Positions 39,453 to 63,416 of a DNA stretch of 64,000 bases are shown here, in pieces. The first letter of the stretch is position 1, and each line of letters begins with the position of its first letter. A program made the position numbers and the translations under genes. The notes under the pieces were generated by a model, which did no database searches, had not been told where the DNA came from, and was given only the letters and a program-made list of their open reading frames with translations. Source of the stretch: Streptococcaceae bacterium ESL0687 (GTDB lineage Bacteria > Bacillota > Bacilli > Lactobacillales > Streptococcaceae); NCBI GenBank assembly GCA_029392475.1, contig CP113940.1:806001-870000 (forward strand). Reading direction: 5' to 3'.

Positions 39453-39516
39453 CAATCTATCCTCCATATTTTTACAATATTCTAACATTTTTTCAAAAAA
39501 ATAAAAATATTTATTA

Positions 39517-39552
39517 AAAAAGACAGGATAGATACATATCCTGTCTTTTTTC
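39517..39552 (-). terminator. Terminator of the signal-peptidase-like gene
   Basis: A 14-bp stem AAAAAAGACAGGAT with its complement around an 8-base loop, with T-runs on both sides. It starts at the stop codon and sits between this gene and lysA. Confidence 0.92.
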
Positions 39553-40169
39553 TAATTGCTTGATTGAGAATTGTCTAATCCTGTATCAACCTTAAAACCA
39601 TTTTCAAATTTTGCTTCATCATTTTGAACAAAACCAAAATCCTTAAATGGATAGTACCTAAAGCTGATTCGACCGTAAATATCTGATTTATTGATTAGAC
39701 CAAATTTCCTGCTGTCGTCTTCAACCTTACGGTTGTCATTTAAAATTAAGTAGGTATCCTCAGGCAATTTAGCTATATCCTTGCCTGAAATACTTGCTAC
39801 TGTGAAGTCTGTATTATACTCTTCACCTGGATTTTCAAGTAGATAGGCTGTTTCGTTATCCTTAATATAAGGCTCCTTGATAACCCGGCCATCAATATAG
39901 AGAAGATCATCAAGCATAACTGCTTCTTGATTTGGAATGGCGATAATTCTTCCGATATATTTTTTACCGTCATGCCTGTAAGCAACCAGGTCAAGATTTT
40001 CAAGCTTGGATTCTTTTAAGGCAATAACCTGGTCTGATTTTACTAAAACCGGAGCCATGTTATCATTATGGATCCTAATAGGCTCAATAATAAATATACG
40101 TAAGACTGCTAAAAAAACAATAATAACGCTCGCAATTATTAGTTTAGTATATAAATCTCTCTTTACCAT
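39552..40169 (-). CDS. Signal peptidase I homologue lacking catalytic Ser and Lys
   Basis: Type I signal peptidase fold (205 aa): one N-terminal transmembrane helix (about 10-28), then extracytoplasmic boxes B-E. Box E (LNDNRKVEDDSRKFG) is well kept. In box B the nucleophile serine of SMxP is Asn37 (DNMAP), and in box D the general-base lysine is Gly73 (YIGRIIAIP). Both codons were read directly (AAC and GGA). It therefore should not cleave signal peptides. Streptococcal SipA-like proteins in pilus loci also lack these residues and act as assembly chaperones, but no pilus or sortase gene is present here. Function unknown. Confidence 0.85.
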   Translation of the reverse strand: MVKRDLYTKLIIASVIIVFLAVLRIFIIEPIRIHNDNMAPVLVKSDQVIALKESKLENLDLVAYRHDGKKYIGRIIAIPNQEAVMLDDLLYIDGRVIKEPYIKDNETAYLLENPGEEYNTDFTVASISGKDIAKLPEDTYLILNDNRKVEDDSRKFGLINKSDIYGRISFRYYPFKDFGFVQNDEAKFENGFKVDTGLDNSQSSN

Positions 40170-40228: not shown

Positions 40229-40237
40229 AATATATTA

Positions 40238-40309
40238 CTGGGGTAGCTGGATTCGAACCAACGCATGAGGGAGTCAAAGTCCCTTGCCTTACCGCTTGGC
40301 TATACCCCA
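40238..40309 (-). tRNA. tRNA-Gln (anticodon TTG)
   Basis: 72-nt cloverleaf: acceptor TGGGGTA / TACCCCA with discriminator G. The anticodon arm AGGGA-CTTTGAC-TCCCT shows TTG, and the T loop contains TTCGAAT. CCA is not encoded. It follows tRNA-Tyr by 23 bases on the same strand and probably shares its promoter. Confidence 0.96.
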
Positions 40310-40332
40310 AAGGTATTAGTTTAAAAACTAAA

Positions 40333-40413
40333 TGGAAGGGGAGGGATTCGAACCCCCGAACCCGAAGGAGCGGATTTACAGTCCGCCGCGTTTAGCCACT
40401 TCGCTACCCTTCC
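40333..40413 (-). tRNA. tRNA-Tyr (anticodon GTA)
   Basis: 81-nt cloverleaf with acceptor GGAAGGG / CCCTTCC. The anticodon loop is CTGTAAA, and a long variable arm is present as expected for bacterial tRNA-Tyr. The T loop contains TTCGAAT. It is first of two tRNAs, about 26 bases after the predicted transcription start. Confidence 0.96.
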
Positions 40414-40445
40414 ATGTTAAAAGTATATCAAAATCAACAAAAATA

Positions 40446-40474
40446 ATTCTATCAAAAATTTATTGATTTTTCAA
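40446..40474 (-). promoter_or_regulatory. Promoter of the tRNA-Tyr/tRNA-Gln unit
   Basis: Minus strand: -35 TTGAAA (40469-40474), 17-base spacer, extended -10 TGATAGAAT (TAGAAT at 40446-40451). Confidence 0.75.
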
Positions 40475-58279: not shown

Positions 58280-59728
58280 TTATAGGTATCTTTGAAAAAG
58301 AAGCCGTTCAAGAGCTACTAAATCCCTTTTACCTGTAATTGTTCTTGGAAACTCTTCTTCTAAAAAAAGAAGTTTACTTATTAGATTATAGGAAGGAAGA
58401 TTCTCGCTTATAAGCTCGTTAATTTCATAAAGGTCTAACTTGCTACCCTTATAGACAGCTATTAATTTATGAGTGTCATGAATTTTTAGGGGAAGTAGCC
58501 AAATATCAATCTGTAAAAACTGCTTAAGCACTAAAGATTCAATCTCTGTCAAATTAACCCTATAACCTCTAATTTTAACTTCCCTATCTTTTCGTCCTAA
58601 ATAATAAGAAGCCTTATTTGGAGCATCAACAAGATCTCCTGTCTCAAAATAATCTGTGAAATTTTTTATAAGACCATCCTCTGTAAGATAACCCTTAAAA
58701 ATATAGGGAGACTCTAAAATCAAACTATAATTATTGGCCTTTAAAAATTCAAATTTAAGGTTAACCTTATTTATTGGGGTACCGATTTTTCCAATATCTC
58801 CTGTATTATTAATAAAAAGCCCTGAGCTATAAGAGTGTTCGGTTTGTCCATACAAAGAATAGACTTTTAAGACTGGAAATCTTTCCTGAGCCCTTGAAAA
58901 ATCAGACTCTAAAAGAACTTCTCCTCCAAATACCATAAGTCTAAGCTGGGTACCTGCTACTTCTTGCGACAACCTAAAATAACTCCTAAACAATGTTGGT
59001 ACACTATGCCAAACGGTAATACTATTATTAATTAACCATCTGTTTAAACTTTTTATTCTTATAGGATTTGTGACATCAACCATAAAAAGACTAGCACCAG
59101 CCAAAAGAGAGGAATAAATATCGACTATTGATGCATCATGGGCTAGGCTTGAAAAAAGTGTTAAATTATCTTTCCCAGATATTGATAGATTATTTATATA
59201 TTCTTTAGCAAAATGATAGACTGCCTTTTTTCCTTGAATTACTGCTTTGGGGATTCCTGTTGTGCCAGATGTATAAAGATGATACATGGTATCACAAGAC
59301 TCGTTAGAGATATCTATTTGCTCATCTAAAAAATTATCTCGGTCATTCTCCCTAGCATTTCCCTTTAAAAATACAATTTTCATCTTAGGGAATATAAGTT
59401 TTAGCTCATTTATTAAATCAGTATTTTCACTGGTTACTATCAATGTATCAATCTTTGATATTTTAATCATCTGACAAATTCTTTTTAGGGGTAAATTATC
59501 AACAATAGGTACAAAAACAGTATCACTGTAAAGGCATAAAAGTTCTGCTCCTAACCCGTAAACATTATGTCCTGTCAAAATACCTGCTAGCTTAGAATCC
59601 TGTAGTGATATCATGTTTACCACTATTAAATCCTTAAGTTCTTTATAGGTCAGTTGATTTTTTTCATCTTTTACAGCAAGCTTAGAAGCATACAGATTAA
59701 AACTTTTTAAAATATATTTTTTTAACAA
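58280..59728 (-). CDS. Stand-alone amino-acid adenylation domain
   Basis: ANL-superfamily enzyme (482 aa) expected to activate an amino acid with ATP and load it on a carrier protein. NRPS-type core motifs: A3 YTSGTTGIPKAV (152-163), A4 with Asp198 (AHDAS), A5 YGQTEHS (293-299), A7 FETGDLV (361-367), A8 RGYRVNLTEIE (387-397) and A10 Lys467 (PRTITGKRDL). Asp198 matches the residue that binds the amino group of alpha-amino acids. No condensation, carrier or thioesterase domain is fused. It overlaps the MFS gene by seven bases and ends the operon. DltA or another acyl-activating enzyme is the alternative. Confidence 0.88.
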   Translation of the reverse strand: MLKKYILKSFNLYASKLAVKDEKNQLTYKELKDLIVVNMISLQDSKLAGILTGHNVYGLGAELLCLYSDTVFVPIVDNLPLKRICQMIKISKIDTLIVTSENTDLINELKLIFPKMKIVFLKGNARENDRDNFLDEQIDISNESCDTMYHLYTSGTTGIPKAVIQGKKAVYHFAKEYINNLSISGKDNLTLFSSLAHDASIVDIYSSLLAGASLFMVDVTNPIRIKSLNRWLINNSITVWHSVPTLFRSYFRLSQEVAGTQLRLMVFGGEVLLESDFSRAQERFPVLKVYSLYGQTEHSYSSGLFINNTGDIGKIGTPINKVNLKFEFLKANNYSLILESPYIFKGYLTEDGLIKNFTDYFETGDLVDAPNKASYYLGRKDREVKIRGYRVNLTEIESLVLKQFLQIDIWLLPLKIHDTHKLIAVYKGSKLDLYEINELISENLPSYNLISKLLFLEEEFPRTITGKRDLVALERLLFQRYL

Positions 59729-60939
59729 ATCTTATTACCCATTTTCATATATCTTTTTAAGCATCCAAAGGAAGCACAAATGACAAAGCAGATTACAAAT
59801 GCCATGTAGGAGTTTCCAAGCTTAAATGATTTATTTAAACCACTACTTAAAAGGGGAATGATTAAAACAGTTGAAAGTGAGATACTCATCTGCCTTAAGC
59901 CAGATATTTTACCTAAAAACTCTTGTCTAGCAGCTGTTTGTAGGGTTAAATTGAAACTTGCTGAAGAGAGGCTATTATTTAGCCCTAGAATAAGCATGAC
60001 TGGCGCTACCATTTGCAGGCTACTAATTGATAGGATTAAAAAGCAAGCGAGCTCCATTGTTAAAGCAAACATTGAAAGAAGAATATTTTCATGAAATTTA
60101 TTTAAGCGACCAAAAATTTCAACTCCTACTATTGCCCCCACAGCAAATAACCCGTCCCAAATGGATAGCCAGTAATTTTGGGCATTAAAATAAGTAAGCA
60201 TCGGAGCATATAAAATATTTATATAGTTTGCAATCACAGCATCAATGACCCCAAAAAATGCCAGGAAAAAGAGAGATTTTTGCAAGCTCAAATGATTAAA
60301 TAAAGTCTTCCAATCATTTAAGACCATTGAAATTTTAAAATGATGAAGGGACTTTAGAAAATCAAAAACCTTAGTATCTTGTGTTGGTATGGTTACCATA
60401 TGCATGGTATAGGCTGAAACCAAATAGGATAACCCATTGACAAAAATAGCACCGTAGGGAGATAGGAAGGAGATGATAAAACCAGCAACCCCTGCTCCAA
60501 CCAGCTGACCAATTTGCTGGAAGGCTGAAACTCTGGCATTATATTTGGCTAAATCACTACCGGATGCTATTAGGGGTGCTATTACAAAGACAGATGTCCT
60601 ATAAAAGGGTTGAAAGAAACTTAAGAGGGCAGCTAAGATAATAAGAAGGTTTGGACTGGTAAAATAAGACAAGATACCAAAAATCAAAATTAAAGACCCT
60701 CTTAGAAATTCTGCTAGAACGGCTGAAACTTGAGCGAAACCCTTGTCACTCACAACACTTGCAAAAGATTGAGTAAGAAATGATAAAACAGCCTGTAAAA
60801 CAACAATAAGGGCAAAACTTGATGTCTTTCCTGTATGGTTATAAAGAAGAATACCGATGGATAAGGTGTACATCCCATTACCAATGTTTGAGATAAGCAT
60901 ACCTGCTGGTATAACAGCTTTTGGATTTTTAGTGAACAT
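59722..60939 (-). CDS. MFS transporter, probable exporter
   Basis: Major facilitator protein (405 aa) with about 12 hydrophobic helices and a central cytoplasmic loop near residues 195-215. The N-terminal half resembles the MFS_3/EntS-type exporters often found in biosynthetic clusters (PAGMLISNIGNGMYTLSIGI). It lies two bases after the ATP-grasp gene and overlaps the adenylation gene. Export of, or immunity to, the cluster product is inferred from context; the cargo is unknown. Confidence 0.82.
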   Translation of the reverse strand: MFTKNPKAVIPAGMLISNIGNGMYTLSIGILLYNHTGKTSSFALIVVLQAVLSFLTQSFASVVSDKGFAQVSAVLAEFLRGSLILIFGILSYFTSPNLLIILAALLSFFQPFYRTSVFVIAPLIASGSDLAKYNARVSAFQQIGQLVGAGVAGFIISFLSPYGAIFVNGLSYLVSAYTMHMVTIPTQDTKVFDFLKSLHHFKISMVLNDWKTLFNHLSLQKSLFFLAFFGVIDAVIANYINILYAPMLTYFNAQNYWLSIWDGLFAVGAIVGVEIFGRLNKFHENILLSMFALTMELACFLILSISSLQMVAPVMLILGLNNSLSSASFNLTLQTAARQEFLGKISGLRQMSISLSTVLIIPLLSSGLNKSFKLGNSYMAFVICFVICASFGCLKRYMKMGNKIC

Positions 60940-60941
60940 AA

Positions 60942-62192
60942 TTATTCTCCTTCAAAAGAGAGTAGGATATTTTGATCCATAAATTTCATATAATCTGTCA
61001 AATCACTTTCACTTTTAATATGGTCAGGCAGATCACCTATCAGCCAAGCTAGATAGGACAAAGAATCCCCTTCCTTTGGCAAATAAGCTCCTACATCCTT
61101 TCTAAAAGTAACACTAGTGATATTAGAATTTCCCTCTAGAAAACCTTCTTCAACCTCTAAGGATTTAATTTTTCCAAAGCCTTGATAGCCCGCATTGTAC
61201 CAAAATTTACGGTGGATGGGACTGGGACTGGGATTTTTTAAATGATTAACTGACTGCTGACATTCAGGAATACTAGCAGCTACTAGGTAATTATAAAAAC
61301 TGATTCCTAGCGCATCACTTAAAATCCTATATAGGGCTCCCCCTGCCCCTGGTCTTAAGGCCGCTTCAATTATATAAGGGGTTTCATCCATGACTCTAAG
61401 CTCCGTATGAGTGCATCCATTTTTTACGCCACACGCCCTTACCCCATCGTAACTGGTCTGAAGGATTCTTTTTCTTATCTCCTCAGATAAATCTGAATCA
61501 GTATAGTAAATTCTGTCTGGAAAATTTGGGCCAACTGGGGTTCCCTTACTTAAAATCCCGCTTAAAATAGGCTTGCCGTCAATCCAAATAGTATCAACCG
61601 AATATTCTTTACCACCTACTAATTGTTCAATTATAAAGCCTGATTTTCCCTTTTTCTCTTGCCCTAAACTTGTCAAATTAAATCTTAAAATATTTCTAAT
61701 CTGCTTTTTCAAATCTTCCATGTTATGGACTTCTCTAACCCCAGCACTTGCAGCTCCAAAAACTGGTTTTACAATTAAAGGAAAGGTCAAATCTAAGTGA
61801 CTAATATCAGAATTAGTAAATACACCGTAAAATTTTGGGGTAGGTACATTTTCCTCTTCCCACTTAGCCTTCATAAGCCCCTTGTCCCTCAATAAAAGAT
61901 AGGAATATTTATCATTAATGGCTACTCCAAATTTTTCAGCAATTTCAGCCATTTTATAGGTCAATTGTTCAATACAATTAACAATCCCTCTAACGTTTCT
62001 ATATTTATTTGCTAGAAAATCAAATATCTCCTGGCTACTTGCTGAAAAATCAATAGTTTCATAAGTATAAGATTCATCAATATCCCAGTTATCCAAAGAA
62101 TATATAAAAATTGGTTGGTAATTTAAGTCCATAACTTCTTTAGCGATAAAGGGAACGCTTGTACTTTCTGTTAGAATCAAAACCTCCTTCAT
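60942..62192 (-). CDS. ATP-grasp ligase, amino-acid ligase-like
   Basis: ATP-grasp enzyme (416 aa) that probably forms an amide or thioester via an acyl-phosphate. The N-terminal Rossmann-like part begins MKEVLILTESTSVPF. The ATP-grasp core has FPLIVKPVFGAASAGVREV near residue 140-158, FIIEQLVGGKEYSVD near 190-204, HTELRV and IIEAALRPGAGGAL near 262-282. These resemble BacD-type L-amino-acid ligases. It could join an amino acid to an acceptor or load the carrier protein. It overlaps the carrier gene by four bases. Confidence 0.82.
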   Translation of the reverse strand: MKEVLILTESTSVPFIAKEVMDLNYQPIFIYSLDNWDIDESYTYETIDFSASSQEIFDFLANKYRNVRGIVNCIEQLTYKMAEIAEKFGVAINDKYSYLLLRDKGLMKAKWEEENVPTPKFYGVFTNSDISHLDLTFPLIVKPVFGAASAGVREVHNMEDLKKQIRNILRFNLTSLGQEKKGKSGFIIEQLVGGKEYSVDTIWIDGKPILSGILSKGTPVGPNFPDRIYYTDSDLSEEIRKRILQTSYDGVRACGVKNGCTHTELRVMDETPYIIEAALRPGAGGALYRILSDALGISFYNYLVAASIPECQQSVNHLKNPSPSPIHRKFWYNAGYQGFGKIKSLEVEEGFLEGNSNITSVTFRKDVGAYLPKEGDSLSYLAWLIGDLPDHIKSESDLTDYMKFMDQNILLSFEGE

Positions 62193-62440
62193 TTTTGATC
62201 CCCCTTAAAATCTTCATAAAGTTTGATGACCCTACCTACAGTAGAAACGTCATCAATATCAAAGATATCATAATCAAATTCCCTACCTACAAGATCTTCA
62301 ATCCGTAACACAAGATCCATGGTAGCTAGACTATCAATTCCCAGATTTTTTATGGGAGTTTGTTCATAAGTTTCTTGGTTTTCCTTTATATCTTCAATAG
62401 TAGCCTCACTTAAAAAACCCCTAAAAATTTCCTTAACCAT
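62189..62440 (-). CDS. Stand-alone peptidyl/acyl carrier protein
   Basis: Carrier protein (83 aa), distinct from AcpP. The phosphopantetheine serine is Ser37 in NLGIDSLATMDLV, and the acidic helices VLRIEDLVGREFDYD and IFDIDDVSTVG follow. It overlaps its upstream and downstream neighbours by a few bases and sits with a stand-alone adenylation domain, so it likely carries an aminoacyl group. AcpS at 32.5 kb or an unseen Sfp-type enzyme would prime it. Confidence 0.88.
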   Translation of the reverse strand: MVKEIFRGFLSEATIEDIKENQETYEQTPIKNLGIDSLATMDLVLRIEDLVGREFDYDIFDIDDVSTVGRVIKLYEDFKGDQK

Positions 62441-63416
62441 TCTTTTCTCCTTCTTTTAAAACAAAAGCATGAATTGACTTCTGTAAAAGTGCGTAACTAT
62501 TCCCAAGATTTTTCAAGCTGACTAAATATTTATCATATATGGAAGGTGACTGCCTAGCATTTAAAAAACTAAACCACTTAAAAAGTTCTTTTAAGTCATT
62601 TCTCACATGATTGATTTGTTTAGTACTTTCAATTTCTGCCCCATAAAAAGAAAATACCTCCTCCCAACAGTTCAAAATAGGTTCAATTTTATTGGCTATG
62701 TGTTTATACATCCTAAGTTGATCACTCTTTGCCAGACCTTCATCAAATATTTTTGACCGTCTATCCCTATAGTATTCATAAAGTCCATCTAAGGCTAGTC
62801 TACTTGGCTCAACTATTTGCCCATTTTGGTACAAATTTCCATTTTTACAAGTATAAGCATATTTCCCAAACATAATTTTTTCGAAAATATTAGCCCAAGT
62901 GATTCTTTCTAAAAAGAGATTAATCTTCGAAGCATTAAGGAAAACGAGATTAAAATCCTTTAACTCTTCAGGTCCGAATTTCAATTTAAAATCCTCCAAG
63001 GTAAAAGGGACTTTTAAATTCCGATTAGTTTCATTTGTCTTAGTCAAAAATACTTGATTTCCTTTAATATCTTCAATCAAAGTGCTAGTAAAATAGATTG
63101 ACCCATCCTTATGATTATTAGCAAGCATGGCATAGGCCGTACAACCTTCACGAAACTTATTCTTCAAGGTATTTTCCAAAGTTATTTCTGAACAAGTAAT
63201 TTCTTCTTCAAACTCTTTTTTTAATCTATCAAAACCATTTGAATTTAAAGGAATGATAGGCTCATTTCCGCTTAAAAGATCAAAACCTAGATATCTATCC
63301 ATAAAAAGAATTTTAAACAAAGAAAATTTTTGGATTCTCTCCAGATAATGAAACATTGTTCGGTCATAACAAACATAAGCAAGACTATCCTCGTGTTCTA
63401 AATCAGTAAGTTCCAT
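62433..63416 (-). CDS. Unrecognised protein, possibly BtrH-like transferase
   Basis: First gene of the operon (327 aa), soluble, with no signal peptide. I do not recognise a firm domain. The N-terminus (YVCYDRTMFHYLERIQ with Cys16) recalls the start of BtrH-type cysteine acyltransferases, and His102 in NNHKDGSIYF followed by beta-strand-like IEDIKGNQVFLTKTN could complete a papain-like site. This is a weak, by-eye inference. A charged helical C-terminal half follows (about 200-320). The context with carrier protein and ATP-grasp enzyme resembles butirosin side-chain transfer. A+T content is high: two sampled 60-base lines (62521-62640) have 17 G+C each. Confidence 0.6.
   Translation of the reverse strand: MELTDLEHEDSLAYVCYDRTMFHYLERIQKFSLFKILFMDRYLGFDLLSGNEPIIPLNSNGFDRLKKEFEEEITCSEITLENTLKNKFREGCTAYAMLANNHKDGSIYFTSTLIEDIKGNQVFLTKTNETNRNLKVPFTLEDFKLKFGPEELKDFNLVFLNASKINLFLERITWANIFEKIMFGKYAYTCKNGNLYQNGQIVEPSRLALDGLYEYYRDRRSKIFDEGLAKSDQLRMYKHIANKIEPILNCWEEVFSFYGAEIESTKQINHVRNDLKELFKWFSFLNARQSPSIYDKYLVSLKNLGNSYALLQKSIHAFVLKEGEKNG

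What the first reader, a model, noticed from the sequence alone, without database searches (positions are those of the whole stretch)
39552..40169. Signal peptidase fold with both catalytic residues replaced
Box B reads DNMAP with Asn37 at the serine position, and box D reads YIGRII with Gly73 at the lysine position. Both codons are unambiguous, while box E (NDNRKVEDDSRKFG) is intact. This is a pseudoenzyme under apparent structural constraint. Catalytically dead SipA-like proteins are known from streptococcal pilus loci, but here no pilin or sortase is nearby, so a different chaperone-like role is possible.
Basis: seen in the sequence. Interest (0 to 1): 0.66.

Follow-up and report, generated by a model that had tools for sequence, protein, structure and literature searches.

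The report
Catalytically dead signal peptidase paralogue
This gene encodes a relative of the enzyme that cuts signal peptides off exported proteins, but both residues needed for cutting are gone; the same dead version has been kept under strong selection across most Streptococcus, Floricoccus and a third related genus, so it probably binds exported proteins without cutting them.

Summary
Window 39552-40169 (minus strand) encodes a 205-aa type I signal peptidase (SPase I) homologue with Asn37 at the catalytic serine and Gly73 at the catalytic lysine. Box E is not quite intact: the invariant Gly of GDNR is Asn144. The organism is a 1.47-Mb relative of Floricoccus (Streptococcaceae). It also has one SPase I with complete Ser/Lys motifs elsewhere.

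All four Floricoccus-group genomes keep Asn37/Gly73/Asn144, with synonymous codon variation and dN/dS about 0.06, as low as the active paralogue. The gene belongs to one clade (100/99 support, catalytic columns removed) shared by Floricoccus, a third genus and most Streptococcus (197 of 337 family genomes). In 74 aligned members the lysine is always Gly or Ser and the box-E Gly always Asn. In Streptococcus it usually follows pfkA-pyk, the position of S. sanguinis SSA_0849, which a 2017 study treated as an active SPase.

It resembles pilus SipA, but the own genome shows no pilus cluster and kinship to SipA is unresolved. Best reading: an ancient, chromosomal, non-catalytic SPase-fold membrane protein that binds exported precursors. 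Inactivity is strongly supported by sequence; the binding role is inferred.

The parts
39552..40169 (-). Gene for the 205-aa SPase-I-like pseudoenzyme (P0001)
   Evidence: ORF and translation; PF10502 and TIGR02227
40155..40169 (-). Predicted cytosolic N-terminal motif M-V-K-R-D; Arg4 in 74/74 and Asp5 in 73/74 clade members
40092..40166 (-). Single N-terminal helix, residues 2-26 (membrane anchor by analogy with SPase I)
   Evidence: AlphaFold2 model, helix 2-26, block pLDDT 85-95; membrane role inferred
40044..40073 (-). Box B, residues 33-42 IHNDNMAPVL; Asn37 (codon 40059-40061) at the catalytic Ser position
39927..39965 (-). Box D, residues 69-81 KKYIGRIIAIPNQ; Gly73 (codon 39951-39953) at the catalytic Lys position
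39693..39746 (-). Box E, residues 142-159 ILNDNRKVEDDSRKFGLI; Asn144 (codon 39738-39740) replaces the invariant Gly
39579..39638 (-). C-terminal tail, residues 178-197 FGFVQNDEAKFENGFKVDTG, invariant in the four genus genomes; a related F(V/I)ENDEAK-ENG(F/Y) tail in g9
39515..39556 (-). Hairpin followed by U run just after the stop codon, likely terminator separating the gene from the downstream decarboxylase gene
   Evidence: fold -19 kcal/mol, z -6.8
40237..40310 (-). tRNA-Gln (ttg) upstream, same strand; order tRNA-Tyr, tRNA-Gln, pseudo-SPase kept in L041/L042 (Floricoccus)
40332..40414 (-). tRNA-Tyr (gta) upstream, same strand
40446..40474 (-). Promoter-like site TTGAAA-17-TAGAAT with TG before the second hexamer, upstream of the two tRNAs; possible common promoter
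   Evidence: promoter count in the region equals that of shuffles, so weak

Best explanation
The gene encodes an ancient, chromosomal, non-catalytic SPase I paralogue of the Streptococcaceae. Shown: the SPase fold is kept, and the Ser/Lys dyad and the box-E Gly are replaced throughout a well-supported clade. Also shown: the protein is under purifying selection as strong as on the active SPase I of the same genomes. Inferred: it sits in the membrane by one N-terminal helix, with its SPase-fold domain outside, close to the Sec/SPase I exit site. There it holds the signal-peptide or N-terminal region of exported precursors in the retained hydrophobic groove without cutting, acting as an adaptor or chaperone for their release, folding or hand-over. 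That would be the general form of what SipA is thought to do for pilins in S. pyogenes.
For: Fold: PF10502 2e-29; AlphaFold2 pLDDT 81.6, Foldseek to SpsB 6e-11 and to SipA 4n31 9.5e-7. Inactivity: in 74 aligned clade members position 73 is only Gly or Ser and position 144 always Asn, whereas all 14 active sequences compared have Lys73 and Gly144. Position 37 drifts among M, D, A, E, T, S, Q and N in Streptococcus, and no outward-facing Lys, His or Cys is invariant. Constraint: dN/dS 0.061 against 0.071 for the active paralogue in the same genome pair; Asn37 codons AAC/AAT and Gly73 codons GGA/GGT/GGC/GGG. One clade 100/99 with catalytic columns removed. 198 of 337 family genomes match, one of them an active enzyme. 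The groove positions equivalent to E. coli F84, I86, V132, Y143, I144 stay mostly hydrophobic or aromatic (E. coli mapping from own knowledge). SipA precedent: dead dyad, groove kept, essential for pilus polymerisation (PMC4049620).
Against: No client, partner or activity is known for any member. Gene neighbours differ between genera (pfkA-pyk-X, often then glmS, in Streptococcus; tRNA-Gln in Floricoccus; pyrimidine-nucleoside phosphorylase in g9), so context names no client. Deleting S. sanguinis SSA_0849, very likely the orthologue, changed neither growth nor biofilm thickness (PMC5817204). In SipA, blocking the groove (V99R) did not stop polymerisation (PMC4049620), so groove binding may not be the function even there. 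Lactococcus-like genomes (g8) and some Streptococcus do without the gene.
Confidence: 0.5

Rival explanations
1. A partner subunit of the active SPase I: the dead paralogue binds the active enzyme and tunes its stability, placement or substrate choice rather than binding precursors itself.
For: Every genome of the genus has both genes, and most Streptococcus genomes with the dead form show one or more further SPase matches. The N-terminal K-R-D motif, Tyr64 and Phe180 are clade-specific and nearly invariant, which fits a protein contact.
Against: No interaction data. Lactococcus-like genomes (g8) have an SPase I match but no dead partner.
Confidence: 0.25
2. A SipA-type assembly factor for sortase-dependent surface proteins: it presents LPXTG proteins to the sortase.
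For: Same replacement pattern as SipA (Asp48, Gly85, Asn140). The own genome has one sortase beside a 616-aa LPXTG protein with Cna_B and SpaA domains.
Against: The gene lies about 335 kb from the sortase, no pilus cluster was found, and its neighbours differ in every genus. L. lactis has a sortase (control) while the Lactococcus-like genus g8 has no clade member (genus identity inferred). Common descent with SipA is neither shown nor excluded (AU p 0.47-0.70).
Confidence: 0.12
3. An enzyme with an unusual active site that still cleaves, using other residues.
For: Strong purifying selection; invariant Asp145, Asp152, Ser153 and Arg154 in box E.
Against: Position 37 is free to vary in Streptococcus and no outward-facing Lys, His or Cys is invariant. 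The box-E residues are shared with active SPases, so they need no new role. Asn144 occupies the place next to the catalytic lysine; in SipA any side chain there would clash with that lysine (PMC4049620).
Confidence: 0.05
4. A decaying pseudogene that happens to be open.
For: Gene absent from some Streptococcus and Lactococcus-like genomes.
Against: dN/dS 0.06, a frame open across three genera, and kept in reduced genomes of about 1.4-1.5 Mb.
Confidence: 0.02

Closest known systems
SipA of Streptococcus pyogenes pilus (FCT) loci, PDB 4n31 / 4k8w (PMC4049620)
   Same: SPase fold with Ser, Lys and box-E Gly replaced (Asp48, Gly85, Asn140); one N-terminal transmembrane anchor; no peptidase activity shown for SipA.
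   Different: SipA is in pilus operons, shorter, with a divergent middle part; other pilus SipA-like proteins keep box-E Gly (L198-L207). The window protein is not in a pilus locus and its kinship to SipA is unresolved.
SpsA of Staphylococcus aureus, inactive type I SPase (PMC12445088)
   Same: Chromosomal SPase I homologue lacking two conserved catalytic residues, beside an active enzyme in the same cell.
   Different: SpsA was not placed in the tree here; whether it shares this clade was not tested.
S. sanguinis SSA_0849 (PMC5817204)
   Same: Listed there as a second SPase, 31-33% identical to SSA_0351; locus tag follows SSA_0847 (phosphofructokinase) and SSA_0848 (pyruvate kinase), the pfkA-pyk-X position of this clade in Streptococcus. 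Very likely the orthologue.
   Different: The paper treats it as a working SPase with substrate overlap. Its sequence was not readable here by name.
Active type I SPases: EF3073 (4me8), SpsB (4wvg), the own SPase I (L001)
   Same: Fold, boxes C and most of D and E, topology.
   Different: They have Ser, Lys and the box-E Gly; this clade lacks the Lys and Gly everywhere and the Ser nearly everywhere.

Membership tests
Active type I signal peptidase (S26) | S26 fold and conserved boxes | tested here: met
   PF10502 2e-29, TIGR02227 1.6e-32; Foldseek to SpsB 6e-11
Active type I signal peptidase (S26) | Catalytic serine in box B | tested here: not met
   Asn37; fixed in 4 Floricoccus-group and 11 g9 genomes
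Active type I signal peptidase (S26) | Catalytic lysine in box D | tested here: not met
   Gly73; Gly or Ser in 74 of 74 clade members
Active type I signal peptidase (S26) | Invariant Gly of box E (GDNR) | tested here: not met
   Asn144 in 74 of 74
Active type I signal peptidase (S26) | Cleaves preproteins | not testable with these tools
   Needs an assay
SipA pilus assembly factor | SPase fold with dead Ser/Lys dyad | tested here: met
   SipA residues from PMC4049620
SipA pilus assembly factor | Encoded in a pilin/sortase cluster | tested here: not met
   Neighbours are tRNAs, a PLP-dependent decarboxylase and ilvE-like genes; sortase about 335 kb away
SipA pilus assembly factor | Same clade as SipA | tested here: inconclusive
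   AU p 0.47 (SipA 4n31 plus L197) and 0.70 (all SipA-like), not rejected but not shown
SipA pilus assembly factor | Needed for pilus polymerisation | not testable with these tools
   No pilus cluster found in this genome
Streptococcaceae pseudo-SPase clade (this report) | Monophyly against active SPases with catalytic columns excluded | tested here: met
   100/99 support, 63 rows
Streptococcaceae pseudo-SPase clade (this report) | Gly/Ser at Lys, Asn at box-E Gly, K/R-R-D N-terminus, Tyr64, FGF end | tested here: met
SpsA of S. aureus | Common descent with SpsA | not tested
   No SpsA sequence was fetched

The most novel reading that the evidence does not exclude
Most Streptococcus and Floricoccus species carry a previously unrecognised, vertically inherited non-catalytic member of the signal peptidase family that works as a general component of protein export: a precursor-holding adaptor or a subunit of the active SPase I. 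Pilus SipA would be its specialised offshoot.
Probability: 0.3. Interest if true: 0.72.

Novelty: new variant of a known kind. Interest (0 to 1): 0.52.

Why it matters
Dead signal peptidases were known as a pilus accessory (SipA) and as an isolated case (SpsA). Here one inactive lineage appears to be a near-standard chromosomal gene of Streptococcus, Floricoccus and a third genus, kept under selection as strong as that on the active enzyme. It is annotated as signal peptidase I (equivalog TIGR02227), and its likely S. sanguinis orthologue has been interpreted as a redundant active SPase. If right, counts of SPases in streptococci and arguments from redundancy (for example, why the other S. sanguinis SPase gene can be deleted) need revision. 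A testable question opens: what does a signal peptidase that cannot cut do in protein export?

Tried and rejected
Alignment shift placing Ser/Lys elsewhere: rejected; boxes align without gaps to four solved SPases, and Lys69/Lys70 upstream of Gly73 are not kept in the clade. Pseudogene: rejected by dN/dS and frame conservation. Alternative nucleophile: rejected as a shared mechanism, since no outward-facing Lys, His or Cys is invariant. Pilus-specific role in this organism: one sortase and one LPXTG adhesin only. Link through gene neighbourhood: tried; context differs per genus, so it gave no client. Origin of the clade among active SPases: AU tests with the other Streptococcaceae second SPases, SipA and SPase I all failed to reject (p 0.47-0.84), so left open. 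Phage and plasmid relatives: only distant (<60% identity) hits, at most 38% among those listed. Papers naming the pyk-linked gene (SipC, glmS context) were not found.

Full report
Observation. The ORF at 39552-40169 on the minus strand encodes 205 aa. It is a type I signal peptidase homologue by Pfam (2e-29) and NCBIfam TIGR02227 (1.6e-32). In SipA the same Gly is replaced by Asn140, and the authors note that any side chain there would clash with the catalytic lysine (PMC4049620). The three changes therefore belong together.

Organism and genome. Named relatives at 72% protein identity are Floricoccus tropicus and F. penangensis. The genome is one contig of 1.47 Mb. A search with PF10502 finds only two SPase I genes: this one and an SPase I with complete motifs at C1:966134 (GHSMDPTL, DIIKRVIG, LGDNR). 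One sortase lies next to a 616-aa LPXTG protein with collagen-binding, SpaA and Cna_B domains about 335 kb away; no pilus cluster was seen.

Conservation and selection. All four genomes of the genus keep Asn37, Gly73 and Asn144. The codons differ synonymously (AAC/AAT; GGA/GGT/GGC). Between the window and its sister genome dN/dS is 0.061, against 0.071 for the active paralogue. The gene is not decaying.

A family-wide dead clade. A search of Streptococcaceae genomes and extraction of about 80 loci showed orthologues in a second genus (g9, 11 genomes, all N/G/N) and in most Streptococcus (g4; genus codes are anonymous, names inferred). In 60 aligned Streptococcus sequences the lysine position is Gly (38) or Ser (22) and the box-E Gly is always Asn. 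The serine position is Met, Asp, Ala, Glu, Thr, Gln, Asn or, in two, Ser with the lysine still lost. With the catalytic columns removed, the clade is separated from all active Lactobacillales SPases, including Streptococcaceae SPase I, at 100/99. The simplest reading is a single loss of lysine before these genera split (inference). At E<=1e-55, 198 of 337 family genomes match; one (G016, g5) has an intact dyad, leaving 197: 4 genus, 11 g9, 182 Streptococcus (only 74 were read residue by residue). Genus g3 has independently odd second SPases (Tyr, Phe at Ser; Glu at Lys).

Context. In 38-41 of the Streptococcus loci examined, the gene follows pfkA and pyk; glmS is downstream in 35. In S. sanguinis, SSA_0847 is phosphofructokinase and SSA_0848 pyruvate kinase (PMC5817204), so SSA_0849 sits in exactly this position. 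That study counted it as one of two working SPases and proposed substrate overlap; its deletion had no growth or biofilm-thickness effect. I infer that it is a member of this dead clade; its sequence could not be read here by name. In Floricoccus the order is tRNA-Tyr, tRNA-Gln, gene; a strong terminator hairpin follows the stop in the window. In g9 a pyrimidine-nucleoside phosphorylase follows. Context therefore does not name a client.

Structure. AlphaFold2 gives pLDDT 81.6 and an N-terminal helix 2-26, with the SPase fold matched to SpsB (6e-11), EF3073 and SipA. Positions that line the S1/S3 groove in E. coli LepB (mapping from own knowledge) stay mostly hydrophobic or aromatic: 31, 33, 63, 71, 72. 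Clade-specific near-invariant residues are K/R3-R4-D5, Tyr64, Asn144 and Phe180.

Mechanism. Shown: fold, loss of the dyad, selection, single clade. Inferred: no cleavage; membrane anchoring with the domain outside; binding of exported precursors or of SPase I/Sec. The best-supported analogue is SipA, essential for pilus polymerisation without peptidase activity, although a groove-blocking mutation there had no effect (PMC4049620). A partner-subunit role is the main rival. Kinship with SipA is open: AU tests do not reject a common clade (p 0.47, 0.70), and tests with other SPase groups are equally undecided.

Novelty. Dead SPases as such are known: SipA, and SpsA of S. aureus (PMC12445088). 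In the papers searched I found no description of this chromosomal Streptococcaceae lineage as inactive. I rate it a new variant of a known kind.

Noticed in passing
58280-63416 (-): Compact operon: AMP-binding enzyme (482 aa), MFS transporter (405 aa), ATP-grasp ligase (416 aa), small phosphopantetheine carrier protein (83 aa) and a 327-aa protein without Pfam match. Looks like a small amino-acid or peptide ligase biosynthesis cluster with its own exporter.
   Followed up: partly
G000:C1 near 776196 (outside the window; L130, L136): A frame reported as open for 8237 aa overlaps a weak LPXTG-anchor match; a giant surface protein in a 1.47-Mb genome.
   Followed up: no
L133:7134-10110: The only sortase found in the genome sits next to the only LPXTG protein over the Pfam cut-off (collagen-binding, SpaA, Cna_B domains).
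   Followed up: partly
L096, L117, L118 (genus g3): A reduced-genome Streptococcaceae genus has second SPases with Tyr or Phe at the catalytic Ser (Lys kept) or Glu at Lys and Glu at the box-E Gly: apparently separate losses of activity.
   Followed up: partly
L197-L207: Streptococcus SipA-like proteins, found with a SipA query, show several dead types: Asp/Gly with Asn in box E, Gly/Ala or Asp/Gly with Gly in box E.
   Followed up: partly
39579-39638: Extracellular C-terminal tail FGFVQNDEAKFENGF is invariant in the genus and kept in g9 as F(V/I)ENDEAK-ENG(F/Y), but absent in Streptococcus orthologues; function unknown.
   Followed up: no
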